Shown one piece after another: positions 18,124 through 53,424 of a stretch of DNA of 64,000 nt. Source of the stretch: Humulus lupulus (lineage: Eukaryota; Streptophyta; Magnoliopsida; Rosales; Cannabaceae); contig NC_084795.1 in the NCBI RefSeq assembly GCF_963169125.1, forward strand, positions 145,861,766 to 145,925,765. The letters run 5' to 3'. The translations under genes were made by a program, and so were the position numbers. Each line of letters starts with the position of its first letter. Within the stretch, counting starts at the first letter, position 1. Below the pieces are notes generated by a model. The model was not told the DNA's origin and searched no databases. It saw nothing but the letters and a program-made list of their open reading frames with translations.

Positions 18124-18137
18124 TTTACCCCCCAAGG
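18124..18137 (-). promoter_or_regulatory. Element B polypurine tract
   Basis: On the - strand CCTTGGGGGGTAAA abuts the 3' LTR. It matches the tracts of C, F and G. Confidence 0.9.
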
Positions 18138-23010: not shown

Positions 23011-23479
23011 AGGGGTTTTATCTTTAATTATTTTTCATTTTGAGTTTTTCATTGCGGACATTTTTGCCATAATCATAGCATTCTCCTTTCTTTTCTGCCG
23101 AGTTCTTTATTTATCTTTGCGCTTAGGGTAGACATTTATACGGTAGAAACTGTTGTAGGGGCGTATGGGGTTTTGGTTCCAACGGCCAAAACCTATGCAC
23201 TTCCCACTTGAAGCTTTAACGGATGATGTCTTTTCCCATGTAGTTTCTAGGTTACGAAGGTTTCCTGGTTCCAACGGCCAGGCTCCTTTCACCGTATTTT
23301 AGCTTTCCTGAGGCAAATAGCCAATCCCGGGACTTGTAGTTATACTGTTCGCTGGGATTGCTAAGGTGAGTCGTTCCATTGTTTGGAACGGGGGTTCTTT
23401 TGGTGAGCGTCGCTAGACTTAAGGTTAGATCTTTGCGAAGCAAAACTAACTGTTGTTGCGAACCTCATGGTGGCGGACT

Positions 23480-24140
23480 TCAGGGACCTGGCATGGAGCC
23501 CTGCGAGGCAAGGCTTATTGCTGTCGGGGAAATCGCCACGCCCACCAGGTGTGATCCTGGAGCAGGGGCTTTGCGAAGCAAAGCCGGCTGTGAGTGGGGG
23601 GATCAAGCATGTCTGCTTCTGGAGCTGAAACTTGCAATGGCCATGGAGCTTGCCATGCATTATTTTGTGAGATCCGGAGTTGGAGCCTGCGAAGCAAGGC
23701 TTACAACGGTCGCGGATCTTGCCATCTTTTGCCTCGCTGGACCCGGAGCTGGAGCTTGCGAAGCAACGCTCTACAGCGCTCGCGGATCTTGCCAACTTTC
23801 GCCTTGCGGGACCCGGAGCTGGAGCTTGCGAATCAAAGCTCTACAGCGCTCGCGGATCTTGCCATCTTTCGCCTTGCGGGATCCGGAGCTGGAGCTTGCG
23901 AAGCAAAGCTCTACAGCGCTCGCGGATCTTGCCATCTTTCGCCTTGTGGGACCCAGAGCTGGAGCTTGCGAAGCAAAGTTCTACAGCGTTCGCGGATCTT
24001 GCCATCTTTCGCCTTGCGGGATCCGGAGCTGGAGCTTGCGAAGCAAAGCTCTACAGCGTTCGCGGATCTTGCCATCTTTTGCCTTCCGAGACCCGGAGCT
24101 GGAGTTTGCGAAGCAAAGATCTACAGCGATCGCGGAGAAT
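23480..24140. repeat. 70-bp tandem repeat in the element B post-pol spacer
   Basis: The word 'ccggagctggagcttgcgaa' or a variant recurs at 23741, 23811, 23881, 23951, 24021 and 24091, exactly 70 bp apart. A copy at 23672 and more diverged ones lie to the left. Because 70 is not a multiple of three and no unit carries a stop, all three + frames stay open across the array. Those ORFs are artefacts. Confidence 0.92.
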
Positions 24141-24466
24141 TCTGCAAAGGACTTGTCAGGGAGTTGGGGGTGTTTTGGCGTAGCTCTATGAACGTGCCTC
24201 AACCCCCAGTCCCGTCCATCGCTGGGCTACACAGGAGATAATTCTCATGATACATAATGGCGGGCATTTCCATGGCAATTTTCACATAAGCACATAATGC
24301 ACATATGACACGTAATGCAAGCATGTTCATGGCAACAAATAAACCTAAGCTTAACAATTTAAACATTTCAAACAATTTAAAAATTTCAAACACAATGCTA
24401 GCACACAAGTGGTGTTCTGTGTACGTTTTGTTCAAGGGGCGTATGGCTATGCCTTAGCCATGTATA

Positions 24467-24516
24467 CCCCCCAAGTGAGCGTGGGGTCCGGACGTCTCCG
24501 GACCGCGTGGTCACTT
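24467..24516 (-). promoter_or_regulatory. Conserved inverted repeat plus internal G-run after pol (B copy)
   Basis: On the - strand AAGTGACC (24516-24509) faces TCACTT (24478-24473), which runs into GGGGGG (24472-24467). Between the arms lies a second, perfect GGTCCGGA...TCCGGACC inverted repeat. It sits between the pol end and the repeat array, as in F, C and G. Confidence 0.65.
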
Positions 24517-24689
24517 GTTAAAACGCAGCTTTGAACACAGGGATAAAAAGTGCAGTAAAAGCGGAGTGAATCTCTCCGTGTTTCATTAAATTAGCCTGCT
24601 AGGCGTGAGTTTTACAACAGGGAGGATTATTTCCACATTTTTCACTTTTGCTATTTTCACCAAGGACTTCCGACTGGATGGTCCGGGGC

Positions 24690-27600: not shown

Positions 27601-30600
27601 TGCGACTCCTGGAGAAAGCCTATGGACATCAATTTGTCCACTTCAGCTTTGACGACTTCGGCTCTCACTGGGTCCAGCGGCCTCCTCTTTTGGCGAATTG
27701 GAGTTGCAGATGGGTCTATGTTGAGTGCGTGGCACGCAACATTGGGATTAATCCCCGTCATATCAGCGTGGCACCATGCCAGGATATCCTGATTATCCTT
27801 CACAGTGGCCACGATCTTATCTCGAACGGCCGACGGCAGGTTTTTCCCCACCTGAATGACCTTGGTGGGTTCTCCCGGGTTGAGGATCACCTCTTCGACT
27901 TCCTCCATCGGCTCTATTGCTTTCTCGATTCCCACTCTTGGGTCGAGTTCGTCAAAGTATGCCTCCTGAGCACCCCCAGTTTCTGGCAATACTTCCGCCA
28001 AAGGAATGGCAGCAAACGTCTCTCGGACCGTGTAGACGGCTCGGACGGAGACGTTATAACAGCTCCGTGCACTTCTTTGGTCTCCTCGGAGGGTGCCAAT
28101 ACGCCCATCGTCGCATGGAAACTTCAAACATAAGTGGTGTATCGAGGTTATGGCCCCACAATCGATCAGGACCGGTCGGCCTAAGATGGCATTATACGCC
28201 GTGGGGCAGTCGACCACCACGAATGTGCTATGCTTGAAGGCACAAGCGTCGCTTTCTCCTCTGAGGGTGACTGGAAGTTGAATTTTGCCTAATGGCATGA
28301 GTGCGTCCCCATTGAAACCTTGAAGCTGGATGGGGCATGGGGCCAGGTCCGTCTCGGTCAATCCGATCGCGTGGAAGGCCGCTTTGAAGAGGATGTTCAC
28401 GGAGCTTCCGTTATCGATCAAGATCTGTGAGACCTTCTTATTGGCAATCTGGGCTTCCACCACGAGGGGATCGTTGTGGGGGAAGTGCACATGTCGAGCA
28501 TCATCCTCCGTGAAGGTGATGGGAAGATCCATCATTCGGGGACGTTGAGCAGGTGATTGGACCAAGGCGCACATCTCCTTGGCGTGCTCTAACTCCCTCA
28601 AGTACCTCTTCTGGGAGTTGCGGGTGCTTCCGGCAAGGTGTGGTCCTCCGGAAATGGTGGCGACGTGTCCGTCAACGGGTGGCGGAGCAAGGCCGGGCGG
28701 ATATGGGTTACCTGGTCCTGGAGCCAACAAGGCAATGGGCGCCGGAGCGGGTGGAGCAGGAAGTGCGGGGAACTGAGACCCGGGAGTTTGGGGGTGACCG
28801 GCTCCAGGAGCGCTAGCGGCCCCCCTCTGTCCCGGGGAATATGCAGCTCCGTGAACTATCCCCTGTCCGGGATAGATAATGGGTATCCTCACCCACTGAC
28901 CGAGGTGTCCCGCTCTTGCCAGGGACTCGATCTCATCCTTCAGCTGAAGGCACTCGTTTGTGGTGTGCCCCACGTCTCCGTGGAACTCACACCTTTTATT
29001 GGAGTTTCGCGGACGCCTTCCTCCGTGAGACACTTTCGGGGGCTTCCTGTAGTTGACCATATTACAGGTCGCCCGATAGACATTCTCTCGCGAGTCTATC
29101 AAACTGGTATATTCCGTGAACTTGGGCTCATAGTCCTTCTGGGGTTTCTTTGAATGGTCTCCCCGGTTGGAGTTTCTTCCGCTTCGTTTGCTCCGCGATT
29201 GGCTCAAATTTCGTTCTGGAGCTTCCGCTTGTGGCTGCGGCATGCCAGGAGCGATACTACATCCGGTTTGTACTGCTCCGTACCCAGAGAAATGGGTTTG
29301 ACTCGGCGTCTGAGCAGACGCGGAAGGCCCATACACACTTGGAGTGAATCGGGCTCCTGGAAGCGTGAGGGCTGGTGCGGGAGCTTGCGAAGCAAAGCTC
29401 GGCGCTGTTACGGAAGGCGTTGGAGCCGGGGGAACTCCGAAGGCCTGCTGGTAGGCATCCTCAAGGTTGATGATTCCCTGAGCTTTTGACATGAATTCGG
29501 ACAGCGTTTCTGCCCGTCTCCTTTGCATTTCCCCCCATAGCAGGGAGCCGACAGTAAGGCCCGATTGAAGGGCGATCAGCTTCATGTCATCGCTGACCTT
29601 GGTTTTTGCAGCAGCTTCCATCATTCTCTGAATGAAAGCTTTGAGGTTCTCAGTGGGTTGCTGCTTGATGTTGGTTAAGGAGCCAACCTCCATGTCGTGG
29701 TCGCGGGCAGCAATAAACTGCCTCCTAAACGCGGACTGTAGCTCCTTCCAACTGTGGATTGATCCGGGAGCTAATCTTTTCCACCAGTCCTCCGCGGACT
29801 TGGTAAGGGTGAGTGAGAAGCACATGCATTTGGCGTCCTCACTGACACGCGCCACTTGCATCATTTTATTGTATTTAGCTAGGTGGGTACGCGGGTCTGT
29901 CCTCCCATCATATAATTCTATGTGAGGCATTTTGAAGTTATCCGGGAGGGACGTTTCCGCGATCCTCCTAATACATGGTTCCAGATCTTCCTCCTCAGAG
30001 TCTGACAGGGCCCCACTTTGCTTCCGGACCAGCTTGGTCAAGGCAGCAATCTGTTCCTCGAGCCTCTTCGTATCACTTTCCGGGAGGTCACGTCCTCGGA
30101 GCTTGTCATTAATATGATTTCGGAGCTCATCTCCGCGAGGCCGGGCCTTTTCTCCTTTGGCCTTTTCATACTTGGCCTCCAACCTTCTTCTTAGGTCCAC
30201 CGTGGACCAGCTATCTTCGGAGTGCGAGTTCGCAGCCCGACCGTCCTGATTGACGGAATCACTGGGGCGGTTGTTCCTTCCCCTAGGCCTGGGTGCCTTA
30301 GCACCGGGCCCTTTAGGCACAGAGTGCCCCCTTGGGGCTGAAGGACGTCTGGGCTTAGGAGCGCCAGAGACCTTCTGCGCGCGGGGGGGGCAGTCGGCCT
30401 GGTGATTCACGCCTTTAGGAGGTGCAGGGGCGTCAGCGCGCACAGGCTCTCCAACTTTTTCTTTACCCTTGTTAGGGGCGGCTTTGGATGGTCCAGCAGC
30501 GGCTGGATCCGGCATGGGGGCATCAGCACCACCTAGAACAGAGGCATCCTCGTCCGAGTCGCCTAGATCTCCAAACTTACTTTGGAGGCGTTCCATCATG

Positions 30601-30929
30601 CGTTGCATTCTTTCGGAGACGCGCTCCTGCTCAGCAAGCTTGGCCTTAGTGGCCACCAGTTCTTCGGCTACTTGGACCAGTTCTGGGTCCTTCTCATAGT
30701 AGCAGCCGTCCTTGTAATAACTGTCTTGGACATACTCTTCTTCGTCTTCTAAGTATGTTGTATCTTCGGTACTGACCCGATCCTGGCGGGATGTCGGGTC
30801 TTCACCTTGGTAGTCTAAGGGTTCGCTTTGCACCACATCTTCCATCACGGTATCGGGGTTGACCGTAGCATTTTTGTCAACAGCGGATTTTCTCGTAGTC
30901 ACCATCTCTTTAGCACGAAGTGAATACAA
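24690..30929 (-). CDS. Element B Gag-Pol polyprotein (one internal TAG)
   Basis: A single frame of about 2079 codons is interrupted only by TAG at 25334-25332. The start at 30929 (a second Met is eight codons in) follows the primer site by about 40 bp. Approximate residues: gag domain 328-460; CHHC-type knuckle C-E-F-H-G-D-V-G-H...C near 643; protease I-D-N-G-S-S near 838; RT Y-V-D-D near 1231; RNase H V-D-G-A-S-N near 1515; integrase zinc-binding H...H...C-E-Q-C near 1735-1770; core Asp near 1800 and 1863 and Glu near 1897. The stop replaces the Gln after S-D-N-G, beside the second catalytic Asp, so integrase would be truncated without readthrough. No other lesion was seen. It would drive capsid formation, reverse transcription and integration. 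Confidence 0.95.
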
Positions 30930-30971
30930 AAAACGTACACAGAAAAAGAGCTGACTAACAACTTCCTACAG

Positions 30972-30989
30972 CTCTCAATGAAAGCACCA
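30972..30989 (-). promoter_or_regulatory. Element B primer binding site, tRNA not assigned
   Basis: On the - strand TGGTGCTTTCATTGAGAG lies three bases inside the 5' LTR. The same 18 bases follow the 5' LTR of C (38215-38232). I cannot name the matching tRNA with confidence. Confidence 0.75.
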
Positions 30990-30992
30990 AAA

Positions 30993-31880
30993 TGTTTACC
31001 GAGTTTTTCAGAAACGAATAACTAACAGAATAATAAAAAGATAAGAACTGTAGAAATGCTGAAATGTAACTAAACAAACAGTGTTTTTACGTGGTTCAGG
31101 CGTTAACAAGCCCTAGTCCACGAGTCGATGTTATTATACTTGGAAAAGGTTACAGTAAGATGGCTGGTGCACAAGAACTTCACACACTCACAGTGTTTCT
31201 CTCAGGTTCTCTTGAAGAAGATGAAGCTAGAGAGATTTTAGTAGAGTTTTTGCTATATATCCTTTGTCCGTCCCTCTTCTTGTAAAATGAAGGGGTCTTT
31301 ATAGCTAGGGTTTTGGATTAGGGTTTTTCTCTACGTACATGAGTCTTAATTACACCAGCCATAAATAGGGATACAATTACTGTAGTAGCATGGCTACAAG
31401 ACTCTATGTGGGTATATTTACGTGAAAGTATGGGGAACACACAAAGTCAGCCGTCTTTTCCAAGTTGTCAGCGGAACAGTAGGCGAAAAGGTACCCTTAG
31501 GCGTGCTGGGATGTGTGCGGCTTTGACCTGACGGGCGTGTCAGGCGGGATCCTGTGTCAGGTGGATATCATTCCAAATATGCCTCCTCCAGGACTCGACC
31601 GTTTGGCTTTGTTCCGTGCGAGGCACGGAACTGCTTCCGCGGAGACCACTCGAAGAACTTCTCCTGGAAGGAGCTTCCCCGAAGGATACCCCTTCGGGAG
31701 TCCGGGAGAGTTGACGAGTTTCCGTATTGTGTTTGCTTGGAAGAGTAATCCGGACACTAAACGGGAGAGGCGAAGCCTTTCTGTTCATCCGCGAGCTCTG
31801 GTCACCTACCGTGAAAGACATCGATAATTCTGCTTCCCCGAGGTCATCAATCTAAACGCTATCCGGAAATCTGGATAACA
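30993..31880 (-). repeat. Element B 5' LTR (right copy, 888 bp)
   Basis: It has the same length and nearly the same sequence as 17236-18123. The TATA box on the - strand is at 31297-31303. Confidence 0.97.
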
Positions 31881-37204: not shown

Positions 37205-38211
37205 TGTTATCCCCAAAATTTCAGTTTGATGACATGGCAATCAGAAGTGACAAGTGGCAATGCATGGTCAGTAAATGGCGCATTAATAATCAATAAATGT
37301 GTTGGCTCTTCGGAGTTGTGATAAAGTGATCGGACCGACCTGATAGAATTTATGTCCGACTGGTGAAGATTTTTGACTGACTAGAGAAGTGTCATACTAG
37401 ACAAGATGTTAGACCAGAGATGTGCCATGTTAGACCAGAGAAGTGTCATGTTAGACCAGAGATGTGCCATGTTAGACCAGAGAAGTGTCATGCTAGACAA
37501 GAGATGTGCCATGTTAGACAAGAGAAGTGTCATGTTAGACCAGAGATGTGCCATGTTAGACCAGTCGAGTGCATGGCCGACCAGTCAGGTGCTTGGCCGA
37601 CCGGTGAGGTGCTTGACTGACCGGTCAAGTGTTTTGGCCGACTAGTTTTTCTCCAAGGAGTGACGTCGACTTACTGAACAAATTATTGTTATGCAAGCGA
37701 AGTTCCAGCAACGGCTTAGACTAGAATCAGTTGTGCCTACGCGGAAATCTCTCAGATTATTCCGAAGAAGTAGTGTATTGTTGTATTTTAAATGTTATTA
37801 CTAATGAAATATTGTGAGAGTAACATAAAGGACCCGGTCAAAGGGAATATCTGATGTACGATCCATGAGCCTATAAATAGAAGGCTCATGGCATCATTTT
37901 GAGGAATCTGATCTTTTTGGACTGAGAAAAACTCTCTAGTTTTGAGACTTTGGGACTGTTACTTGGGGCATTTTCTGAGAGAGTTTAGAGAGAGAAACTA
38001 TGTATTCTTCTACTTACACTTAAGAAACTCAGTTGACTCAAGCTCATCTAATCTTAAGTGTAGGATATATATATCACAATTCCAAGTGGATTAGGCTATT
38101 ACCAATAAATTGGGGCTGAACCACTATAAAATTATCTGTGTCGTATTTTTCTCTTGAAGGTTCATTATAGTTTTGACGTCTACTCGTCGTTGGCTAAAAT
38201 CGTGGTCAACA
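37205..38211 (+). repeat. Element C 5' LTR (1007 bp)
   Basis: It runs TGTTATCCCC...GGTCAACA. A TATA box TATAAATAG at 37872-37880 lies between CCATGAGCC (37863-37871) and its perfect inverted copy GGCTCATGG (37883-37891). A 21-bp tandem repeat ('agaccagagatgtgccatgtt' type, about nine units) fills about 37390-37565. Confidence 0.96.
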
Positions 38212-38214
38212 TTT

Positions 38215-38232
38215 TGGTGCTTTCATTGAGAG
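38215..38232 (+). promoter_or_regulatory. Element C primer binding site, tRNA not assigned
   Basis: TGGTGCTTTCATTGAGAG, three bases after the LTR, is identical to that of B. Confidence 0.75.
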
Positions 38233-38267
38233 CTTGAAGAGAAGAAACACACAACTACCATATCAAG

Positions 38268-40500
38268 ATGGCGCCCAAGAATACCAATCTGGCATCCAAA
38301 AAGTCAGGCACGTCAAAAGAGCCTGCTAGATCAGAAGGTCCTAGACCATAGAACCCAGAGACTGAGCCCAGGGTCTTTCTCGAGGAGACCACTCCAGAAG
38401 TTGAACAACTCCAAGAAGCAATAGGCGCATTCCAAGAGGAGATGATGCAATTCAATGCTTGGAAGGAGTCTTTCGCTGAAGAAATGGCCAGGCAAAGAGC
38501 TGCGTTAGAGCAGCGAAGGCGTGATATGGAGGCCAGAAGAGAAGAGCTCAGACAGCGACAGGAAGAAGCTGACTGAAGACATCGCAAAGCAGCACTTTCT
38601 CTAGAAGTGGCTACCCATTGGCCCAAGCCAATGCTCAAGCCGCGGCACAAGAAGCCACCCAGGGAGCAAGAAATAATAATGCTGGTCGGAGGACCACTGA
38701 CAGAGCCAATTCTCAGGGACCGGACAAAAGTAGGAGTAACCCCCCTGGTCGGGAAGATGACAGAGTCCGCTCTAGAACTGCATCAACATAGAGGGAGAAC
38801 TCTAGAACTCCCTCCAGGAGTCACCAATCAGAAACTTCTAGATCAAAGAGTCACAGATTGGGCAGTAAAAAGACTCCACCCAGGCAGGATCGGACTAGGA
38901 CTCCTCGAGATAAGAGGACTTCATAGTTCAAAGATGGGCATGGTCGTGATGAGGCTGATAGTCATCACACCGACCAGTCAAAGGATAAAGAAGACAACAA
39001 CCCACAAGGAGGAAAAGACTGCTCGGGACGTACCGAAAAGCCTCCACTGCACCCCGGCCAGCAGCGTAGCAGGAGAGAGCAAGTCCCACGTAGTAAGCCC
39101 TCTGAAAAATCGAAGAGTACAGTGTTTGATTGGGCAAGAGCGGATGCTTCCCGGAAGGATCTAAGGGACGTTATCACCAACAAGAGGAGGACCGTCCCAG
39201 TCGAAGGGCAAAATCTGAACCGCCCTGCCAGTCAAGTAGAAATACTTGACGGCAGTGCACCAGATGGTAATGCCCGACCAGGCGGTCAAGACCTTGGAAC
39301 TTCGTCAGTTGCACCAGTCATCCAAGCCCAGCTTGACGTGCTAAAGGCTGCAGTGCAAGGTTTGTCAAAATGACCTTCCGGGATGGATGCGATAGACCAC
39401 CGAAGTGGTAGCCCATTTTGTGCCCGGATTAGAGCAGCTCAGTCGCCGGCAAAATATAAAGCATCGGTTCTGCCAGTATATACAGAAAAGGCAGATCCCA
39501 TTAGACGTGTTGGGAAATTCGAGGACCAGATGGAACTGCTCGGGGTAAGTGACGATTATCGGTGTAGAGTTTTCCGGACTACTTTGTCAGATACTTCCCA
39601 GGAATGGTATTGGAAGTTTAAGTCGAACTCCATTACCTCTTGGGAAGCATTCAGGAAGGAGTTTTGTAGACAATTCAACACTGCCCGGACTCCACCAATT
39701 TATGCCAACCACTTGGCAGATATCAAACAAGGAAAATATGAGTCTTTAAAGAGTTATATACTGAGATTCATGAGAGAAGCCAATAGAGCAGCTGCTGTAG
39801 GAGACGGGGGGAAGATGGTTTCCATATCCGCTGGGATAACTTATCGGAGCCCTTTGAGGGATAGTATACATAGAAATCCAATTTCAACACTTCAACAATT
39901 TCTTGACTGAGCAGACAAGTATATGAAATTGGATGATGCAATTGAGAAAGAGGAGAATGACATTAACAATCCGGGCAGATTAATTGACCCTCCTAAGAAT
40001 GATGGAAAGAAACGTGGAAATAACTAGTCTGACCACCATGAGGAAAAGAAAGCAAAGTTGAGTTCAAACGAAAAGCCAACCAAGTATGAGCCTCAGTTCA
40101 CTAATTACACCACTCTCTCAGCCAGCCGAGAGGAGATATATCTTGCTAGTCATGAAGAGGTTCCCTACAAGAAGCCTCCCCCCATCATGAAAGAGATGAG
40201 GAAGAGAGATATGAATAAGTTTTGTCGTTTCCATGGAGATTATGGTCACGACACAAATGAATGCAATCACCTTAAGGATGAGATAGAATTTTTTCTCCGG
40301 TCGGGCAAGTTGAGGAAGAACCGGGCAGAGCACCCCAGGAGAAGGAGGCAGCAGCAATTCTGGGTTCGAATGACAAAGATCTCCGCCCTTGCAGCCTGGG
40401 CCTGTGGACTTTACCTTAGACACTATATGTGGATGTCCACACTTGGCTAAGGATAGCAACAAAGCAAGGGAGAGGTATGCTGAGACACGTCGACATGAGC
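38268..40500 (+). pseudogene. Element C gag, followed by a large deletion of pol
   Basis: The start ATG is at 38268 (M-A-P-K-N). A Gln/Arg/Glu-rich coiled-coil stretch is at 38400-38580. A frameshift lies near 38610. The retrotransposon gag domain is at about 39430-39910 (W-Y-W-K-F-K, W-E-A-F-R-K-E-F-C-R-Q-F). The knuckle C-R-F-H-G-D-Y-G-H-D-T-N-E-C is near 40230. Sequence just before the protease (T-I-C-G/C-P-H-L-A-like) is near 40430, and then homology ends at about 40540, where non-coding 3' sequence begins. Stops occur at 38349, 38574, 39371 and 39908. No protease, RT or integrase follows. Confidence 0.85.
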
Positions 40501-40928
40501 GGGAGTGCTAGAATCAGGAGCCACTGGAACGGCAAGCGTCTGTGAATATATTATTTCTAAATACCGCTTTCAGAGTGGTAGTTTAATTTCAAGTTGTTTA
40601 ACTTGTTATTTAAATTTGGTTTATGAGCTGGTTATTTGCTGACTAGTCATCTATTTTTGAACAATTTTTGTTGTTTAAGACTCGTTATTAGACACGTTTT
40701 GTCCTTTTTAATTTACGAGTAATAAAAGAGACTACGCGCAGCGTGGTCGATTCTTGCTACAAATGTTCATGTGTGTTAATTGTTCGAACAGTGTTCAACT
40801 AGTCGGTAAAATTGGATAGTGTTCAACTGGTCGATACGTTTGAGCAGTGTTCAACTGCTCGAGTATTTTCAATATATTCTATGTGTTTCATGAGCAATTA
40901 ACTGCTCGAACAGATTCGGTCAAGTAGC

Positions 40929-40968
40929 AAGTGACCCAGGATCTTTCAACCCTCGATCGATTGGGGGG
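40929..40968 (+). promoter_or_regulatory. Conserved inverted repeat plus internal G-run after the pol position (C copy)
   Basis: AAGTGACC at 40929-40936 is followed by a degenerate right arm (TCGATT at 40957-40962) and GGGGGG (40963-40968). It is retained although pol and the aORF are gone. Confidence 0.6.
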
Positions 40969-41859
40969 CACATGGGGTATACTGGTACATAATTTAACAC
41001 AAGCAATAAGAGCACGAGTAAACATATTTGTTTTTAGGCTGACTTGTAAAATTTTGACGTAAAAAAAGGCCATTAAGCTAACTTGTTTGACAAAGCTTAA
41101 GTAACTTGGAATTTTTCAAAATTTCAAGTTAGAAGCAAATATTCGTGTGACAATAAACATTATGCTCATAAAATGCTAGAGCAATAAGAGTGTGAGAAAG
41201 TATACTTAGCAGGGACTTATGAAATGTCTAGAATTTCTAAGTTAGAAAACTAAGTACTCATGCGAAAATATAAGGCATACATTAGAGTGACTTTACTATT
41301 CACAAAAAACTTATAACTTTTTAAGTCTAAAAAGACTTAGAATGTTTCAGGTTAACAAAGAAAAGTAAAGTATAATTGCCAATAACTCGGCTGTACAAGA
41401 AAAATATCAAAGCTGCTATGCAACAATTGTCTTCACAAGAATAAAGAGTAAACTACTAGCCAGGTACAAGGTTTAGCTGATCAGGTGCAAAGTTTTCCTG
41501 GTCGGGAGAGTAGATACAACTTCCCTGGTCGGCTGAGCATATATCACTGGTCGAGTAGGAAACTCTGTTGTTGAGCATGACTAACAACGATGAGTCCTTG
41601 GAGTGAATCAAACAAACACAAACAAATGAATGCAAAGTAAAAACTACGTAGTGAAAAAATGTCTTTAAGGAGAGAAGTCAATTTTTCCCCAAGATTGATT
41701 GAGAGAAATCAATATCTCAAAATACTTTTGGGAGATTCAAACAAGGTGTTTTGATGGTTTTCGAAGGGATAAGTTTTAGGCATATGCTTGAGTAGCTATG
41801 CCATATGCTCGATCGGTTGGGTGATGGCCGAGCAGATGCTGAATGTGCCCAAGCAGGCC

Positions 41860-42235
41860 CGCACGCGCGTCTGAAGGCTGGTGTCTAAGCAGCTGGGGCT
41901 GCGTCCGATCATTTGGCTAGGTGCCCAAGCAGGCCCGCGCGCGCGTCCGAAGGCTGGTGTCCGAGCAGCTGGGGTTGCATCCGAGCGGGTGTGGGCTACG
42001 TCCGATTGGTTGGCTGGCATGTCCGAGCGGCTGGGGCTGCATCCGAGTGGGTGTGGGCTGTGTCCGAGCGGTTGGGGCTGCATCCAATCGGGTGTGGGCT
42101 CCGTCTGAGCAGCTGGGGCTGCATCCAAGCGGGTGTGGGCTACGTCCGAGCAGGTGTGGGCTGCGTCCGAACGGGTGTGGGCTGCATCCGAGTGGGTGTG
42201 GGCTCCATCCGAGCAGGTGTGGGCTGCATCTAAGC
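41860..42235. repeat. 21-bp minisatellite at the D insertion site
   Basis: Units such as 'catccgagcaggtgtgggctg' repeat every 21 bp, best at about 42060-42235, with longer diverged units to the left. Because 21 is a multiple of three, frames across it give seven-residue G-V-G-x-x-R-x repeats that are not a gene. Related sequence resumes at 50131 beyond D. Confidence 0.85.
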
Positions 42236-44480
42236 TGTAACGACCCGAATTTGCTAATCGGGCTTAGGGCCTTGATTAGGGTGCCTGGAGGGCAATAAAT
42301 GATTTGATATGCTTATATGTTGATTTATGTGAATATATGATAATGATGCATGTTTAGTTGAGTTAAATGTGCATGTGGGCCCCGTCTCGATATTAGGGGC
42401 ATAAATGTGATAAATGTGATATATATATGTGATATGTCTGTGCAGCACGATCCGAGACAGTCCTTGGGAGCGGTTAGTCGGAAAGTCACACCAGGGTTGA
42501 GATTCGGACTCGGGGTGAGTCGAGGGGTAATTTGGGTACTAGGTGTGTTATGGGATTATCAAGATATGAAAATGAATATTTGGAGATATATTTGAGGATA
42601 GAATGTCTAGGCGGGAATATTTGGGAAATTTACCATTTTGCCCTCGGGGACGTTTTGGTTCCCCGAGCATTGAGGTAACCACATAGACTTAAGCTAAATA
42701 AAACAAAAAGGAAGAATTAATTAGGAGCTTTGGGAACCGACTTACACCTTTCTTCTGAACTAAGGATAGCTTCTCACCATTCCTATCTCTCTCTCCTTCA
42801 TTCTCTAAGAAACAACTCAAGGAAATTTTGGTGTAAGCTAGCTTAAGCAAGGATTTGGGCTGAGAAAACTTAGGAGCTTGAAGCTTGGGGATTGAGGATC
42901 AACTTCAGAGATTGAATTCAGCAAAGGTAAGCTTTAATTATAGGGATTATGTTGGGATTTCAGTTGTGTTTTTGGGTTATGCATGTGAGTAGAACTTGAT
43001 CTGTTTTTGGGTGTCTTAGCTGAGTTTTGGAGCAGATTTTAATGGGGTTTTGGTGCTGTTATTGAGCTGAAATAACTGTGTTGGTTATCTAGGATTGTTA
43101 GCCAGGTTTAGGGTGGATTGGATTGAGGAAAGATGTGGAAAGATGGTGAGGAAATCTGGGTTCGGAGGTGAGGGCCGCAGCCCTAGGATGGGCGCGCCGC
43201 CGCCCGTGTGCGCGCGCGACCGAGTGTGGCTGAAGAGTTCATGTGCGTTGTGGTGCTTGGTGCGCGCGCCGTGGCGCTTGGTGTGCGCGCCGCCGCCCGT
43301 GTGTGTTGTAGGGGTGTGCTAGCCTCTGTTTTAAGGCTAGCTGCGGCTCTTGAGGGTGGGGCCGCGGCTCTTAGTGCCAGTTTGTGTTTTTAGGGGTGTT
43401 TAGGTTTGGGAACTCAATGGTTAAGGCTCGGGATGGATTTTATCACCCGGATTAATAGAATTCAAGGTCCCGAAGGTTAGGGTTTTGGCTCGAATTTATT
43501 TATTGAATTAGAACCTGATGGATGGATGTTGTTAACGTGTTGTGACTAGGGTTTCGGAGAGGCTCAAGTCAGAGGACTGTGCTCGGGACATCGGTGCTCG
43601 GAGAGCTCGGGACTCAGGTAAGAAAACCCTTGTTCCCATAGAGCTTGTATGGAGGGCTGAGCCCAATGTGTCTGAAAAGAACTGGTATGCAGGGCTGAGC
43701 CCAAGGTGTTTAAGTTGCAGGGCGTAGCCCTTTGATTGAATTAGCTAGAATTCTGTATTTGCTTGTTATGCTATGACTGTTATTGTGTGAATGATCGGCA
43801 AGAGCCGGGAATGGTGTAGGCCGAGGACGGCAGAGGCCGGGAACGACGAAGGGCATGCTGAGTGCAAGGCCGAGAACGGCAAAGGGTCGGGAGCAGCGTT
43901 GAGCATGTGGAGTGCGAGTTGCCAAGGCGAGTCCCTAAAAGGATACCTGGGATATCCTCACGGCATGGTCCGCGAACCCAGGGCTTGGTAAATGCCTTGG
44001 ATGGCTAGGCCGTATGTGTTTAGCCCATTGGTGGCCTGGTTATATGCTTGATATATGTGTTGCATAAGTTATCTGTTTGTGGGTTTTCTTGTTGGGCTTC
44101 GGCTCACAGATGCTCTGTGGTGCAGGTAAGGGTAAAGAGAAGGTCAACCAACCATCAGTACAACAGGCGCGAGGCGGCGTGTACATGTTTGGCTAGCCTG
44201 GCTGCCACAGCCAGAGAATTTTTTGGGAGATGCTTGTAAATAAACCTAGATTTTGTCGTTAGTCGACTTGGTTCAGTTTATATGTTGTAAATGTTTCTAA
44301 ACTGTATTTTGGGATCCCAGAAGTCAAACTTTTATGATTTTCAATGAAATAAAGTTATTTCTAAAGTTTTTCCTCTGTTTATAGCTTAATTACACTGTTT
44401 TCTCTAAAACCTCGATTAGCGAGTTGAAAGCACGTTTTTAAACTCACTTAGTAACAGCTCTAAGGAAGTAGGGCGTTACA
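42236..44480 (+). repeat. Element D 5' LTR (2245 bp), unpaired
   Basis: It starts TGTAACGACCCG and ends GGGCGTTACA. It is similar over its length to the LTRs of A, including the 'ctaagg-gcaataaatgattt' start region and the 'gggcttcggctcacag' region. It has no partner in the window. Confidence 0.92.
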
Positions 44481-44483
44481 ACT

Positions 44484-44495
44484 TGGTATCAGAGC
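44484..44495 (+). promoter_or_regulatory. Element D primer binding site (tRNA-iMet type)
   Basis: TGGTATCAGAGC lies three bases after the LTR end. Confidence 0.95.
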
Positions 44496-44806
44496 GAGCC
44501 AAGGTTATTGGTTCTGGAGATTGACCGAACATGTACACACACTGTCAGTGACAGGATCAACTCAAGGTTGGTTGGTAAGATTGGCTAATATGTTTGAATA
44601 AGTGTTTGAATGCCTGCTTGCCTGCTTATGTTATATAGAGCATGATGAATGAGTTAACATCTGCATGATGCTAGGGCATGGCCCGTTGTGTGTTACATGT
44701 TATATGAGATATTATTTGTGGGTGACTAATGTGTTTGGGAGGTGGTTTTGGATGTTGTTATCATGCCTGATGAGCGGCGTCGTTGGTTGCAGGCATATTT
44801 GTTGAG

Positions 44807-47800
44807 ATGCCTCGACAATCAGCTAGACTCTGCGGCAGTAGGGCCGAGGATGACAACCAGGGTCAGGACCCTCCACCTGCCCCACAGAATTGGCAAGAGA
44901 TGTTTGCTGAGATGGAAGCAAGATTACAGCGAATAGAGGAAGAGTTGCGATAGTTGAGGCGGCAGGCCCCGCCTTAGGTTACTGGGCTGCCAGTGCAACA
45001 GGTTGCAGCACCAGTGCCAGTGCAGTCTGCTATGGAGAATAAGTGGGAACCTTTGTATGAGAGGTTCAGGAAGCAGCATCCTCCCACCTTTGAGGGTGGA
45101 TCAGACCCACTGTGGGCAGAGTAGTGGATGAATATGATTGCCTCAATTCTGGATTTCGTGAGAGTTCAGGGGAATGAGAGGGTAGCCTGTGCTAGCTACA
45201 TGTTTAGAGAGGATGCCCGCATCTGGTGGGACGTGGTGGTTCAGAGAAGGGATGTATCAGTTATGACCTGGGAAGAATTCAGAAACTTGTTTAATGAGAA
45301 GTACTACAGTGTGGCAGTACGAGCTGCGAAGGTTTATGGGTTTATCAACCTGACCCAGAATCGATCGACAGTGACAGAGTATGCTTTAAAGTTTGATAGA
45401 TTGGCGAAGTTTGGGCCAGATCTAGTGCCGACAGATGCGGCCAGGAGGGATAGGTTTGTGCGGGGGTTGAATGTTATGATCGCCCGCGATGTGAACATTA
45501 CCTTGGATCTAGAGACTACTACTTATGGCCAAGTTGTGGACAAGGCCCTTACTGCGGAGAGTGCCGAAGATCAGATTTGAAAGGACAGCGCTATTAGGCG
45601 TGATGCTAGGAGGACAGTGCCTCCTTTTGTTGGGTTCAATCGTGGTGGTGGTTTTAGTGAGCAGAAGAGGAAGGCCCCAGATTCTTTTGTTCCTCCCAGC
45701 TCAGATAGGGGGGCACGGGGTGCTTCTACTGGCCGTCAAGGTGGCAGTGACAACTGGAGGAGTTTTCCAATGTGTCCGCGGTGCAGGCATCGACACCAGG
45801 GTGAGTGCAGGATCAGGACCTACTTTGTTTGTGGGAGGGCTAGTCATCTGAAGAGGGATTGCCCTCAAGTTAAGAAGGAGGAGCAGAAGCAGAGCAACAG
45901 TCTTGTTCCTGCCAGGGTATTCACTTTGACACAGACTGAGGCGGAGGCTAGTCCCTCAGTTGTGACAGGTCAGATCTCTAGTGCTAGTTCTTTGTATACT
46001 GCATTGTTTGATTCAGGGGCTACCCATTCATTTGTATCTGCTAGAGTGATAGATCAGCTTTGTAGACCTAGTGGTGTGTATGCTAGGGGATTTCAGACTT
46101 TGTTGCCAACAGGGGAATTGGTAGTCTCTAGGAAATGGATTAGAGCATTGCCAGTAGAGGTAGATGGTAGGGAGCTGTCTGTGGATTTGATTGAGTTAGA
46201 GATGGATGACTTTGATATGATTCTAGGGATGGATTGGCTATCCAAGTATGGGGCAATGATTGATTGCAAGCGCAGAATGGTGACTTTTGAACCAGAAGGG
46301 GAGGTACCCTTTGTGTTTGTGGGGTCAGTTAATGGACCGTGTGTACCAATGATTTCAGCCCTAAGGGCTAGAGACTTGATGCAGGAAGGTTGCATAGGAT
46401 TCCTGGCAAGCGTTGTGGATACCTCTAGGGTGGTGTCGGTTGGACTGGGTGAGACTAGATTGGTGTGTGAGTTTCCGGATTTGTTTCCAGCGGATTTGCC
46501 AGGGTTGCCGCTGCAGCGGGAGATTGACTTTGTTATAGAGTTTGTACCAGGAGCGGAGCCAGTATCTAGGACACCTTATAGAATGGCTCCAGCAGAATTA
46601 AAGGAATTGAAGATTCAGTTGCAGGAGTTACTTGATTTGGGGTTCATCAGACCGAGTTTCTTGCCATGGGGTGCTCCGGTGTTGTTCGTTAAGAAGAAGG
46701 ATGGGTCCCTTAGGATGTGTATTGATTATAGGGAGTTGAACAAGTTAACTATTAAGAACAAGTATCCATTGCCTAGGATCGATGATTTATTTGATCAGCT
46801 ACAGGGGAGAACAGTGTTTTCCAAGATAGATCTCCGATCAGGTTACCATCAGTTAAGGATTAAAGAGGAGGACATACCAAAGACTGCTTTCCGGACGAGG
46901 TATGGACATTATGAATTCCTGGTTATGTCCTTTGGATTAACCAATGCCCCAGTAGCTTTCATGGACATGATGAATAGGGTTTTCAAGGATTATCTGGACA
47001 AGTTTGTGATCGTATTCATTGACGACATCCTAGTGTACTCCCAATCAGAGGCAGAGCATGAGCAGCATCTGCGGTTGGTTCTACAGCGGTTGAGGGAGCA
47101 TAAGTTGTATGCTAAGTTCAGTAAGTGTGAGTTCTGGTTGCCACAAGTTACATTTCTGGGCCATATCGTCAGTAAGGAGGGGATTCTGGTTGACCTAAGT
47201 AAGATTGAGGCGGTCGGAGATTGGCCTAGACTGAGCAATGTTCCTGAAGTGAGAAGCTTTCTGGGTTTAGCAGGGTATTATCGGTGATTTGTTGAGGGGT
47301 TCTCTAGAATAGCTACGCCATTGACAGAACTAACAAAGAAGAAGACAAGGTATGTCTGGATGGACATGTGTGAGAATAGTTTTAAGGAACTGAAGCGGCG
47401 GCTGATTACTACGCCAGTGTTAAGCTTGCCGACAGAGAATGAGAAGTTTGTGGTTTACTGTGATGCATCAAGACAGGGATTGGGGTGCGTGCTGATGCAA
47501 GCTGGTAAGGTGATAGCCTATGCATCGAGACAGTTAAAGGAATATGAGCAGAGATATCCTACGCATGATCTGGAGTTAGCAGCGGTGGTGTTTGCACTTA
47601 AGATTTGGAGGCATTATTTGTATGGTAAGAAGTGTGAGATATACACCGACCATAAGAGCCTAAAGTATTTCTTTACACAGAAGGACCTGAATATGTGCCA
47701 GAGACCGTGGCTGGAGTTGGTTATGGATTATGATTGTGATATCCTATACCATCCTGGGAAGGCTAATGTAGTGGCTGATGCATTGAGTCGGAAAGGCTCA

Positions 47801-49279
47801 GGACAGTTGTTCAGTTCGAGGCAGATATCTGATAAGTTAGCTGAGGAGATGACCAGAGCAGGTATTGATTTGGTGATTGGACAGTTATCCAACATCACTC
47901 TACAGTCTACACTCCTTGAGAGGATCAAGGAAGCACAGGGGAAAGATTCCCAGCTGCGAGGTCATAGGGAGAGTGCCTTAGTCGGAGCGACAAAGGACTT
48001 CTCCATCTCAGAGATGGGGTTATTGAAGTACAAGGGTCGGATATGTGTTACGATGGATTCTGATATTCGGCAGGAGATCTTAGATGAATCACATACCACT
48101 CCCTATTCTTTGCACCCGGGTACGACAAAGATGTACCAGGACTTGAGAGCTTTGTATTGGTAGTCGGGCATGAAGAGGGATGTAGTGGATTATGTAGCCA
48201 AGTGCTTAACTTGCCAACAGGTTAAGGCTGAGCACTAGAGGCCAGCAGGGTTGTTGCAGCCTCTAGGGATCCCATAATGGAAGTGGGAAGATATTACTAT
48301 GGACTTCATGGTTGGTTTACCGAGAACTGTGGGACAGCATGACTCAGTCTGGGTGATTGTGGATAGGTACACCAAGTCCGCCCACTTTTTGCCTGTTAAG
48401 ACAACTTATACCATGGAGCAGTACGCTGAGTTGTATGTGAAGGAGATTGTTCTACTTTGTGGGGCTCCGAGGTCGATAGTATCCGACAGAGACCCCTCCT
48501 TCACTTCCAAGTTTTGGGAGAGTCTGCAGAAGGCTATGGGCAAGCAGTTACGGTTTAGCACCGCTTATCATCCTCAGACGGATGGGAAGTCTGAGAGGAT
48601 GATTCAGATATTGGAGGATATGCTGCGAGCCTGTGTGCTTGACTTTGGGGGATCGTGGAGTAAGTATCTCCCTTTGATTGAGTTCTCGTACAATAACAGT
48701 TATTAGGCGACCATTGGTGTGGCTCCGTACGAGATGCTTTATGGAAGGAAATGTAGATCACCTATTCATTTGGATGAGACAGGTGAGAGGAGGTATTTGG
48801 GTCCAGAGATGGTTTAGAGGACCAATGAGGCGATTGAGAAGATTAGAGCGCGTATGCTCGCCTCCCGGAGTCGACAGAAAAGCTATTCAAACCTGAAACG
48901 CAGGAGTGTGGAATTTCAGGTTGGTGATCATGTGTTCCTTAGGGTTTCACCCATGAGGGGTGTGAAACGGTTTGGTGTGGTAGCTTACAGATTAGCGATG
49001 CCTCCAGCTTTATCAGGGGTTCATGATGTTTTCCATGTATCCATGCTTCGGAAGTATATGTCAGATTCAACGCATGTATTAAGTTTTGAGAATCTAGAGC
49101 TTGATCAGGATTTGTCCTATGAGGAGAAGCCGGTTCAGATTCTTGACCGAAAAGATAAAGTCTTGTGGAGCAAGACCATTGCCTTGGTGAAAGTGCTGTG
49201 GAGAAACAGCAAGGTTGAGGAGGCGACGTGGGAACTTGAGTCAGAGATGAGAGAGCGGTACCCCGAATTGTTTAGGTAA
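44807..49279 (+). pseudogene. Element D Gag-Pol with chromodomain: ten stops, no frameshift
   Basis: One frame runs from ATG 44807 to TAA 49277-49279. Order: gag (F-R-E-D-A-R-I-W-W-D near 45215), degenerate knuckle (first Cys reads Tyr, near 45825), protease [11 protein letters not shown] near 46005, [11 protein letters not shown] near 47020, RNase H Y-C-D-A-S-R near 47458, integrase C-L-T-C-Q-Q near 48205, S-D-R-D-P-S-F near 48480 and S-E-R-M near 48590, then chromodomain near 49160-49275. Stops start at 44951, 44975, 45122, 45578, 47285, 48161, 48236, 48275, 48704 and 48815. An in-frame deletion of about 20 codons lies near 48980 relative to A. The integrase triad residues are otherwise present. 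Confidence 0.92.
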
Positions 49280-49298
49280 TTTCAAGGATGAAATTTTT

Positions 49299-49310
49299 GT
49301 GAGGGGATAG
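49299..49310 (+). promoter_or_regulatory. Element D polypurine tract
   Basis: GTGAGGGGATAG corresponds to the tract of A at 34123-34137. In A the LTR starts within two bases of it. Here five bases (tcatt) precede the first base of Cassandra. Confidence 0.75.
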
Positions 49311-49315
49311 TCATT

Positions 49316-49687
49316 TGTGACGCCCCACGTCACTATGGCTGCTTTCTGGAATGATGGCTGGCTTTACAAACCAATACGAGTCTTTTCAGCATGCTTTTTC
49401 CTCACTCACATGCTTCCTAGGAAAACTTCCCAGGAGGTCACCCATCCCTAGATTACCCCAGGTCAAGCACACTTAACTTTGGAGTTCTCAAGTGATGGGC
49501 TACCGAAAAGAAGATGCATCTTGTTGATATAGGTAGTACCCATCAATCCATTTAAGCCCTCTTCAACTGTGTAGTCCCATACCTACACAGTCTTAGAATC
49601 ATCACACTTGACCTTCCCCAGGCGGTGTGGGATTGCACAGCTTACCCGGTCTTTCCCCTTACGGATCACGGGATTCTGACTGTCACA
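49316..49687 (-). repeat. Cassandra 3' LTR (left copy)
   Basis: 372 bp, TGTGACGCC...CTGTCACA on the + strand. It pairs with 49759-50130. Confidence 0.95.
49425..49520 (-). other. 5S rRNA-like domain in the left Cassandra LTR
   Basis: On the - strand the order CCCATCA...GAACTCC-AAGTTAAG-GTGCTTG...GATGGGTGACCTCCTGGGAAG follows the second half of plant 5S rRNA, including its internal box A and box C promoter elements. It is a diverged domain inside a transposon LTR, not a ribosomal gene. Confidence 0.85.
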
Positions 49688-49689
49688 AT

Positions 49690-49756
49690 CACCCCCCCTT
49701 ACAGGCCCGACGTCCCCGTCGGCCACACTTCCGGCTGGGTCAAGGCTCTGATACCA
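49690..49756 (-). promoter_or_regulatory. Cassandra primer binding site and polypurine tract
   Basis: On the - strand TGGTATCAGAGC (49756-49745) is the primer site, and AAGGGGGGGTGAT (49700-49688) is the polypurine tract. The primer site equals those of A and D. Confidence 0.9.
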
Positions 49757-49758
49757 TT

Positions 49759-50130
49759 TGTGACACCCCACGTCACTATGGCTGCTTTCTGGAATGACGA
49801 CTGGCCCTACAAACCAACACGAGTCTTTTCAGCATGCTTTGTCCTCACTCACATGCTTCCTAGGAAAACGTCCCAGGAGGTCACCCATCCCTAGATTACC
49901 CCAGGTCAAGCATGCTTAACTTTGGAGTTCTCAAGTGATGGGCTACCGAAAAGAAGATGCATCTTGTTGATATAGGTAGTACCCATCAATCCATTTAAGC
50001 CCTCTTCAACTGTGTAGTCCCATACCTACACAATCTTAGAATCATCACACTTGACCTTCCCCAGGCAGTGTGGGATTGCACAGCTTACCCGGTCTTTCCC
50101 CTTACGGATCACGGGATTCTGATTGTCACA
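49759..50130 (-). repeat. Cassandra 5' LTR (right copy)
   Basis: 372 bp. Its 5S-like block is at about 49868-49963. Its right end directly abuts tgagc, the presumed duplication partner of taagc before element D. Confidence 0.95.
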
Positions 50131-50451
50131 TGAGCTGTTGGGGCTGTGTCCGAATAGCCTGGAGTGTGCATCCAAGGAGCTGCTGTCTGCGTGTCTGAGG
50201 GGCTGGCATGTGTGCATCCGATGGGCCTGGCACATCCACAGAGTTGTGGTTTGTGTGTCCGAGGAGCCAGGCAGGCGTCTGAGCAGCAGGAAACAACGCA
50301 CCCAAGGGTCAGCAGTTAACAAATTATTTGGATCCCGATGACCGAATAGGCATTTCCAATCAGCTAAGTAAGCACAAGTTTACTCAAAAACATTTTGCTA
50401 GAGAAAAAGTTTATCATACGAGTAAATCATATAATAAACTTGGGGGGCAAA
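50131..50451. other. Element C 3' spacer, right part, with polypurine tract
   Basis: The sequence continues the minisatellite-like spacer interrupted at 42235. The tract AACTTGGGGGGCAAA (about 50437-50451) abuts the 3' LTR of C. No gene seen. Confidence 0.75.
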
Positions 50452-51462
50452 TGTTATCCCCAAAATTTCAGTTTGATGACGTGGCAATCAGAAGTGACAA
50501 GTGGCAATGCATGGTCAGTAAATGGCGCATTAATAGTCAATAAATGTGTTGACTCTTCGGAGTTGTGATAAAGTGATCGGACCGACCTGATAGAATATAT
50601 GTCCGACCGGTGAAGATTTTTGACTAACCAGAGAAGTGTCATGCTAGACTAGAGATGTGTCATGTTAGACTAGAGATGTGCCATGTTAGACCAGAGAAGT
50701 GTCATGTTAGACCAGAGATGTGCCATGTTAGACCAGAGAAGTGTCATGCTAGACCAGAGATGTGCCATGTTAGACCAGTCGAGTGCATGGCCGACCAGTC
50801 GAGTGCATGGCCGACCAGTCAGCTGCTTGGCCGACCAGTCAGGTGCTTGACTGACCGGTCAAGTGTTTTGGCCGACCAGTTTTTCTCCAAGGAGTGACGT
50901 CGACTTACTGAATAGATTATTGTTATGCAAGCGAAGTTCCAGCAACGGCTTAGACTAGAATCAGTCGTGCCTACTCGAAAATCTCTCAGATTATTCCGAA
51001 GAAGTAGTGTATTGTTGTATTTTAAATGTTATTATTAATTAAATATTGTGAGAGTAACAGAAAGGACCCGGTCAATGGGAATATCTGATGTACGATCCAT
51101 GAGCCTATAAATAGATGGCTCATGGAATCATTTTGAGGGATCTGATCTTTTTGGACTGAGAAAAACTCTCTAGTTTTGAGACTTTGGGACTGTTACTTGG
51201 GGCATTCTTGGGGCATTTTCTGAGAGAGTTTAGAGAGAGAAACTATGTATTCTTCTACATACACTTAAGAAACTCAGTTGACATAAGCTCATCTGATCTT
51301 AAGTGTAGGATATATATATATATATCACAACTCCAAGTGGATTAGGCTATTACCAATAAATTGGGGCTGAACCACTATAAAATTATCTGTGTCGTATTTT
51401 TCTCTTGAAGGTTCATTGTAGTTTTGACGTCTACTCGTCGTTGGCCAAAATCGTGGTCAACA
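50452..51462 (+). repeat. Element C 3' LTR (1011 bp)
   Basis: It pairs with 37205-38211. The TATA box at 51106-51114 is again enclosed by CCATGAGCC (51097-51105) and GGCTCATGG (51117-51125). The 21-bp repeat (about 50635-50775) has fewer units than in the left LTR. Confidence 0.96.
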
Positions 51463-52697: not shown

Positions 52698-52805
52698 ACG
52701 GTCATATATAAAAAATTAGGTTATAATTTCTCCAAGTTCCAAAAATAGAAAATGCACTTACGTAGGGGCAACATAAGAAACTCACAATCTATATATATAT
52801 ATATA
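52698..52805. other. Unassigned flank between F and the MITE
   Basis: Short AT-rich sequence ending in a (TA)n run. No gene or repeat family recognised. Confidence 0.5.
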
Positions 52806-53219
52806 GGGAAATTCTCCTATAGGGGCTTCCCTTTAAGCCCTACCGGTGGGGCTCTCAGTGTTCTCGACCCATGAATAGTTTTCGGCATGATTATTTTTAT
52901 GACCATGTATATTGTAGCTATTTAGAGAATCCTGTAAATTTTCAGAAAATTCTAAATAGTTTATAGTACCGAAAACTATGTTCAAATATGTCGTTGCACG
53001 CGTGATTAATTTTTTTTATGCATGTGGAAAGTAACATGTTTGAACCTAGTTTTCGATACTGTAAACTATTCAGAATTTTCTGAAAATTTGCAGGATGCTC
53101 TAAATAGCTACAATATACACAATCATAAAAAAATTGCACCGAAAACTGTTCACAGGTCGAGAAACATTGAGAGCCCCACCGGTAGGGCTTAAAGTGAAGC
53201 CCCTATAGAAGAATTGTCC
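52806..53219. mobile_element. Foldback MITE with about 185-bp terminal inverted repeats
   Basis: The left end GGGAAATTCTCCTATAGGGG matches the inverse of the right end with few mismatches. The complementarity continues through 'taagccctaccggtggggct' to about 52990 on one side and 53035 on the other, so nearly the whole element folds on itself. Flanks on both sides are TATATATA, which hides the exact duplication length. It has no coding capacity. The superfamily is unresolved; the long inverted repeats suggest Mutator-like or a Tc1/mariner relative. Confidence 0.85.
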
Positions 53220-53424
53220 TATATATAATATCTAGGAATAAATGCAAAGAACATAACATGGATATATATCAAAATAATATTGTAAAAAATAAGATGATAA
53301 TAAGATACAACAAAGAAAATTAACCTTATAAGATTGCCCTTATATGTATTTTTTTGGCAAGGAAATTAACCTAGAGTAATTTATAAAAATAAGATGGTTA
53401 CGTCAATTTCATATTATTATTGCT
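53220..53424. other. Unassigned AT-rich flank between the MITE and G
   Basis: I see no gene, repeat or motif. It may be original host sequence. Confidence 0.5.

What the first reader, a model, noticed from the sequence alone, without database searches (positions are those of the whole stretch)
42231..50135. A Tekay element whose 3' LTR is exactly replaced by a Cassandra TRIM, both inside one target-site duplication
Seen: element D has a 5' LTR, primer site, gag-pol and polypurine tract, but directly after the tract (five bases, tcatt) a complete Cassandra element begins, in opposite orientation. Its far end abuts tgagc, matching taagc before the 5' LTR of D at 4 of 5 bases. The flanking minisatellite closes up when D, Cassandra and one 5-bp copy are removed: the joined site aligns without gaps to a neighbouring unit near 42070. 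Cassandra's own flanks do not match each other. Known: TRIMs need proteins in trans, and Cassandra shares the tRNA-iMet primer site with D. Inference: D and Cassandra DNA were joined before or during integration and inserted as one molecule by a chromovirus integrase, which would point to Tekay as a helper of Cassandra.
Basis: partly seen in the sequence, partly recalled or inferred. Interest (0 to 1): 0.88.

Follow-up and report, generated by a model that had tools for sequence, protein, structure and literature searches.

The report
Tekay–Cassandra fusion inserted as one
In a plant genome, a Tekay-like retrotransposon lacks its right-hand repeat and runs through four extra bases into a complete, inverted Cassandra mini-element; the two were likely joined as DNA copies and inserted in one event, which would hint that Tekay-type enzymes help Cassandra move.

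Summary
Element D has one 5' LTR (42236-44480), primer site, degenerate gag-pol and polypurine edge (to 49311), no 3' LTR, and runs into a complete inverted Cassandra (49316-50130). Outer flanks are TAAGC and TGAGC. Two corrections. (1) The minisatellite "closing up" is weak: several joins do as well or better, and a 4-of-5 flank match arises in 2.7% of position pairs there. (2) The first base of "tcatt" belongs to the Tekay-like edge; the extra four, CATT, are the bases between Cassandra's own LTR and primer site, as if Cassandra entered as cDNA with a primer-site remnant. New support for a shared integrase: outside Cassandra, its U5-end 13-mer has only two matches within two mismatches in the window, both Tekay-like U5 ends. 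Ages are compatible: Cassandra LTR distance 0.036, D about 0.039 to 0.045 from stop codons, host element E 0.043. I favour joint insertion of two reverse-transcription products (0.55) over two insertions plus a deletion (0.22). The genome search did not complete, so this rests on one locus. Same-family complexes within one duplication are known; a heterologous, inverted Tekay/TRIM pair is a new variant.

The parts
37205..51462 (+). host LTR element E (LTRs 37205-38211 and 50452-51462, flanked by TTTAG on both sides) whose internal minisatellite carries the D-Cassandra insertion
   Evidence: LTR distance 0.043 (one search used end coordinates up to 4 bases off)
41845..42230 (.). minisatellite (about 21/41-bp units) on the left of the insertion; similar but more diverged sequence follows at 50131 to about 50340
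42231..42235 (+). left copy of the probable target-site duplication, TAAGC
42236..44480 (+). only LTR of element D, TGTAAC...GTTACA
44481..44495 (+). ACT spacer and tRNA-iMet-type primer-binding site TGGTATCAGAGC of D
45125..49276 (+). degenerate gag-pol of D in one reading frame (gag, protease, RT, RNase H, integrase, weak chromodomain; 7 internal stops in this stretch and one more just before it)
49301..49311 (+). polypurine tract and inferred native LTR edge of D, GAGGGGATAGT
49312..49315 (.). CATT, extra bases at the junction; same as the bases next to Cassandra's 5' LTR (AA plus TG of its primer site, read on the minus strand)
49316..49687 (-). 3' LTR of Cassandra (degenerate 5S rRNA at 49405-49519)
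49688..49758 (-). internal region of Cassandra with polypurine tract and primer-binding site (49745-49756)
49759..50130 (-). 5' LTR of Cassandra (degenerate 5S rRNA at 49848-49962)
50131..50135 (+). right copy of the probable target-site duplication, TGAGC

Best explanation
A Tekay-like element D without its 3' LTR abuts a complete, inverted Cassandra TRIM, and the two were likely joined as reverse-transcription products and inserted in one event by a Tekay-type integrase. Shown: D ends at GATAGT, the edge that its relative A has just before its LTR; four bases CATT follow, then Cassandra is complete in opposite orientation; the outermost ends are the U3 end of D and the U3 end of Cassandra, flanked by TAAGC and TGAGC. 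Inferred: D and Cassandra DNA met in one particle or preintegration complex. The Cassandra cDNA kept AATG beyond its U5 end (the two bases before its primer site plus the first two bases of the site). That end was joined, by end joining or a template jump, to a one-LTR form of D that ended at the polypurine/LTR edge. The two free U3 ends were then inserted together with a 5-bp stagger. The integrase would be that of D or a relative, because Cassandra codes for none and its U5 end closely resembles Tekay-like U5 ends here.
For: (1) One 5-bp flanking repeat at 4 of 5 around the pair, none around Cassandra alone. At Cassandra's LTR distance of 0.036, exactly one mismatch in five is expected in about 16% of true duplications, against 2.7% of position pairs in the two arrays (my arithmetic; about 6-fold). 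(2) CATT at the junction equals the bases at Cassandra's primer-site/LTR edge, the only other CATTTGT[AG]AC in the window; chance for four given bases is 1 in 256. [quoted passage not shown] (3) D stops at its inferred LTR edge and Cassandra is complete to its last base, as expected of reverse-transcription ends. (4) The U5 13-mer of Cassandra's 3' LTR has 4 places with at most two mismatches among 127989 13-mers on both strands: Cassandra's own two LTR ends, the U5 end of D, and the U5 end of A's 3' LTR. (5) Rough age agreement: Cassandra LTRs 0.036; D 7 stops against 17 in A over 1370 codon pairs, with A's LTR distance 0.0955, gives about 0.039 for D; upper bound from host E 0.043. (6) Precedent: complexes within a single duplication explained by co-packaging and template switching (PMC1950507, both parts of the text read), and tandem LTR elements inside one duplication, with Tekay over-represented in rice (PMC11899658, passages).
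Against: One locus only; no empty allele, no second copy, no raw reads. The duplication is imperfect while the three other insertions I checked have perfect ones. The array closes equally well or better at other joins. A stop-codon model calibrated on Cassandra's divergence expects 2.3 to 3.7 stops in D; 7 or more come up in 1.3% to 8.6% of runs, and my range starts just after an eighth in-frame stop (45122) that I did not count; with it the calibration on A would give about 0.045, slightly above host E's 0.043. So D may be older than Cassandra, or its template already carried stops. Some of A's 17 stops may come from small alignment shifts (indels listed). A's 5' LTR U5 end matches Cassandra's at only 9 of 13, and the U5 end of Cassandra's 5' LTR matches D at 10 of 13. 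In published Triticeae data recombination complexes outnumber template-switch complexes 20 to 2. The outer ends are both U3 ends, an unusual pair for an integrase (general knowledge). The native D edge is inferred from A, whose LTR shows no blastn match to D's in its middle part.
Confidence: 0.55

Rival explanations
1. Two independent insertions into neighbouring minisatellite units, then a deletion that removed D's 3' LTR, the units between, and the inner flanks. The likeness of the LTR edges (TGTAACGACCC in D, TGTGACGCCCC in Cassandra read on the plus strand) would guide the break; CATT would be repair filler, possibly copied from Cassandra's own primer-site edge.
For: Recombination complexes are the common kind (20 against 2 in Triticeae, PMC1950507). 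The repeat array makes flank likeness and closure partly expected. The LTR edges share 9 of 11 bases (read). The stop-codon load allows D to be older than Cassandra.
Against: Annealing of the two LTR edges would leave no CATT. Break repair without annealing would have to hit both LTR edges exactly. A 4-of-5 flank match is a 2.7% event in these arrays.
Confidence: 0.22
2. D inserted normally; later its 3' LTR was broken and replaced by a Cassandra cDNA captured in repair (integrase-independent), helped by the shared ends TGT(A/G)AC and GT(T/C)ACA, so the flanking duplication is D's own.
For: Explains the duplication, the exact replacement and CATT. Integrase-independent insertion at primer-site and polypurine sequences is described for Tf1 (PMC12786077, passage). 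Cassandra's end at 50130 and the end of D's LTR share GT(T/C)ACA.
Against: Needs two exact micro-homologous joins and loss of a whole LTR of about 2.2 kb with no remnant found.
Confidence: 0.13
3. Assembly error that joined D to an unrelated Cassandra copy.
For: Both elements are repeats in a repeat array; no reads could be checked.
Against: A join between random repeat copies would rarely fall exactly at both element edges and inside similar flanks; the host element E has both LTRs and a perfect duplication on both sides of the region.
Confidence: 0.05

Closest known systems
Template-switch complexes (Angela, Squiq, Opie) of Sabot and Schulman 2007, PMC1950507 (text read)
   Same: Two element bodies inside one 5-bp duplication, explained by co-packaging and joining during reverse transcription
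   Different: Theirs are same-family, with a shared middle LTR and like outer LTRs; here the partners are unrelated, inverted, share no LTR, and one lacks its 3' LTR
Tandem LTR-retrotransposon insertions, PMC11899658 (passages)
   Same: Several element units within one duplication of about 5 nt; Tekay over-represented in rice
   Different: Tandem units of one family, not a TRIM joined to an autonomous type
Cassandra TRIMs and their tandem arrays, PMC7215508 and PMC10853983 (passages)
   Same: 5S-bearing LTRs, tRNA-Met primer site, no coding; autonomous partner called unknown
   Different: Known arrays are Cassandra with Cassandra; here Cassandra is joined to a chromovirus-like element
Tekay (Del) chromoviruses, PMC3605345 and PMC6317226 (passages)
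   Same: tRNA-Met primer site within three bases of the LTR, gag-pol order, chromodomain-like end before the polypurine tract
   Different: D lacks the 3' LTR and has Cassandra in its place

Membership tests
Cassandra TRIM | 5S rRNA-like sequence inside the LTR | tested here: met
   Rfam 5S over full model length in both LTRs on the minus strand, 24.0 and 20.1 bits; sub-threshold (gathering score 38), as a degenerate copy would be (no gathering-level match)
Cassandra TRIM | two short LTRs, tRNA-Met primer site, polypurine tract | tested here: met
   372-bp LTRs, TGGTATCAGAGC, AAGGGGGGG tract
Cassandra TRIM | no retrotransposon coding region | tested here: met
   71 bp between the LTRs
Tekay chromovirus (element D) | Ty3/gypsy order gag-protease-RT-RNaseH-integrase | tested here: met
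   Pfam on five stop-to-stop pieces; gag, protease, RT, RNase H above cut-off, integrase core 29.8 bits just under its cut-off of 32.6; the RNase H piece matches Ty3 in the PDB
Tekay chromovirus (element D) | chromodomain at the integrase C-terminus, upstream of the polypurine tract | tested here: inconclusive
   PF00385 at E 0.0011 and 19.3 bits against a cut-off of 25.1
Tekay chromovirus (element D) | place of the RT in the Tekay clade of a phylogeny | not tested
Joint (single-event) complex insertion | one target-site duplication around the whole complex | tested here: inconclusive
   TAAGC/TGAGC, 4 of 5; 2150 of 79722 position pairs by chance
Joint (single-event) complex insertion | empty site in other accessions or element copies | not testable with these tools
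   The genome search did not complete in 15 tries

The most novel reading that the evidence does not exclude
Tekay-type chromoviruses are a mobilising partner of Cassandra: here one integrase complex took a Tekay end and a Cassandra end at the same time and inserted both cDNAs into one target, leaving a primer-site remnant (AATG) at their inner joint as a fossil of the shared particle.
Probability: 0.35. Interest if true: 0.8.

Novelty: new variant of a known kind. Interest (0 to 1): 0.6.

Why it matters
The papers I saw name no autonomous partner for Cassandra: "we have no indication" (Kojima 2024, PMC10886601, passage) and "(unknown) autonomous retrotransposon partners" (Kalendar 2020, PMC7215508, passage). 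A junction that seems to keep a reverse-transcription remnant, together with matching LTR ends, makes that open question directly testable by genome-wide search and by sequencing extrachromosomal DNA. It would also show that unlike elements can be inserted as one molecule.

Tried and rejected
The minisatellite closure was tested as proof of a single event and set aside: several joins score as well or better. Dating D from synonymous and non-synonymous change against A gave no usable answer, since it turns on an unknown constraint value. The stop-codon age test gave a mild tension in a model and agreement when calibrated on A; both are reported, with the uncounted eighth stop. Relatives of D were sought in viral contigs by protein (8 pattern matches, none a relative) and by LTR-end/primer-site patterns (31 + 39 = 70 loci); none of the 70 contexts carried a U5 end like D's or Cassandra's. 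Whether some are other plant LTR elements was not examined. Priming of Cassandra by D's own tract was considered for the mechanism; GATA is shared by both but the bases between do not fit exactly, so it is left out of the statement. A normal nested insertion of Cassandra at the D edge is rejected because its two flanks match at only 2 of 5. A remnant of the D 3' LTR beyond Cassandra was sought and not found. The comparison of E's U5 end used shifted coordinates and is not used. Eight paper searches gave listings of 0 to 20 rows each; I opened 10 papers in all or in part. None showed a Tekay-Cassandra junction. One search listed 11 papers that hold both names; of these I opened only PMC11899658. 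That is no proof that none is in print.

Full report
What is there. The window is rich in LTR retrotransposons and comes from a plant: it holds a Cassandra element, and the named hits I saw among the 120 listed relatives of a D piece were plants. Host element E (37205-51462) has two LTRs (distance 0.043 over 984 aligned bases, end coordinates up to 4 bases off) and perfect TTTAG flanks. Its internal region holds a minisatellite of about 21/41-bp units. Inside that array lies element D: one LTR (42236-44480), an ACT spacer, a tRNA-iMet-type primer site, and a degenerate gag-pol in a single frame with 7 internal stops in 45125-49276 and an eighth just before. Pfam recognises gag, protease, RT and RNase H; the integrase core is just below its cut-off, and a chromodomain is weak. 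D ends at GAGGGGATAGT, then CATT, then a complete Cassandra in opposite orientation (49316-50130), then TGAGC. The 5-mer before D is TAAGC.

Is the junction special? The related element A (12295-36449, flanks GAAAT) shows the edge GATAGT|TGTAGC. D's own LTR is followed by ACT, the complement of the AGT before the LTR in A, which fits a symmetric cDNA end, so D's native edge was probably GATAGT|TGTAAC (inference). Beet chromoviruses likewise have the tract immediately before the LTR and the primer site within three bases of it (PMC3605345, passage). CATT is therefore extra. In the window CATTTGT[AG]AC occurs twice: here, and where Cassandra's internal primer site meets its 5' LTR. Read in Cassandra's sense, the LTR end is followed by AATG in both places: two spacer bases and the first two bases of the primer site. 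A Cassandra cDNA with an incompletely trimmed U5 end would carry exactly that. This is the strongest sign that Cassandra entered the junction as a reverse-transcription product rather than as chromosomal DNA. The same bases could in principle be repair filler copied from Cassandra's own edge some 440 bp away.

One insertion or two? The flanking 5-mers match at 4 of 5. Among 79722 pairs of positions in the left array and right flank, 352 match fully and 2150 at 4 of 5. The three other insertions whose ends I worked out have perfect duplications. Taken alone the duplication favours one event about six-fold (my arithmetic). With CATT and the exact edges I judge the odds to favour one event, against a published background in which recombination complexes outnumber template-switch complexes 20 to 2 in Triticeae (PMC1950507).

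Ages. Cassandra's LTRs differ at 13 of 372 sites (distance 0.036). D has no second LTR, so I used stops: 7 in D and 17 in A over 1370 codon pairs. A's LTR distance of 0.0955 then puts D near 0.039, below the 0.043 of host E. The counts are small, the counted range begins just after an eighth D stop (with it about 0.045), and some of A's stops may reflect small alignment shifts. A model calibrated on Cassandra alone expects 2.3 to 3.7 stops, and 7 or more arise in 1.3% to 8.6% of runs. The ages are compatible with one event but do not prove it, and D may be somewhat older.

Shared ends. The last 13 bases of Cassandra's 3' LTR, GTGGGGCGTCACA, have four places with at most two mismatches among 127989 13-mers on both strands: the two Cassandra LTR ends, and GTAGGGCGTTACA at the LTR end of D and at the 3' LTR end of A. 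A's 5' LTR end is less alike (9 of 13). The U5 end is a site an integrase binds (general knowledge), so this is largely independent of the junction and points the same way. The tRNA-Met primer site is less telling, since 39% of analysed plant LTR elements use it (PMC6317226, passage).

Mechanism. I propose that D and Cassandra nucleic acids met in one particle. D was present as a one-LTR form ending at its polypurine/LTR edge; such content also equals a one-LTR circle opened at the LTR's U3 edge (inference). It was joined to the untrimmed U5 end of Cassandra cDNA, and the two outer U3 ends were inserted together with a 5-bp stagger. Whether the inner joint formed before or just after strand transfer cannot be told from the sequence. 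Steps shown: structure, extra bases, end likeness, flank likeness. Steps inferred: shared particle, joining, single integration, identity of the integrase.

Known or new. Same-family complexes inside one duplication are described (PMC1950507; PMC11899658). A joined pair of a chromovirus-like element and a TRIM did not appear in the listings of my searches. Papers on Cassandra state that its partner is unknown (passages). I rate this a new variant of a known kind, of real interest because it makes the helper question testable, and held back by resting on one locus without genome access.

Noticed in passing
17236-31880: Young nested LTR element inside element A (LTRs about 17236-18123 and 30993-31880, distance 0.008, flanks GTTAT on both sides).
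   Followed up: partly
12295-36449: Element A, a Tekay-like relative of D split by the nested element; perfect GAAAT duplication although its LTRs differ by 9%, and 17 in-frame stops in the part aligned with D.
   Followed up: partly
37205-51462: Host element E: about 1-kb LTRs, a coding-like start after the primer site, and an internal minisatellite; it may be a non-autonomous gag-bearing element (guess from reading).
   Followed up: no
52798-53227: Long near-palindrome: arms 52894-52991/53034-53131 (98 nt, 90%) and 52798-52862/53163-53227 (65 nt, 92%).
   Followed up: no
48963-48978: D appears to lack a short stretch of the integrase C-terminal region that element A has: the local alignments of D and A break here.
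   Followed up: no
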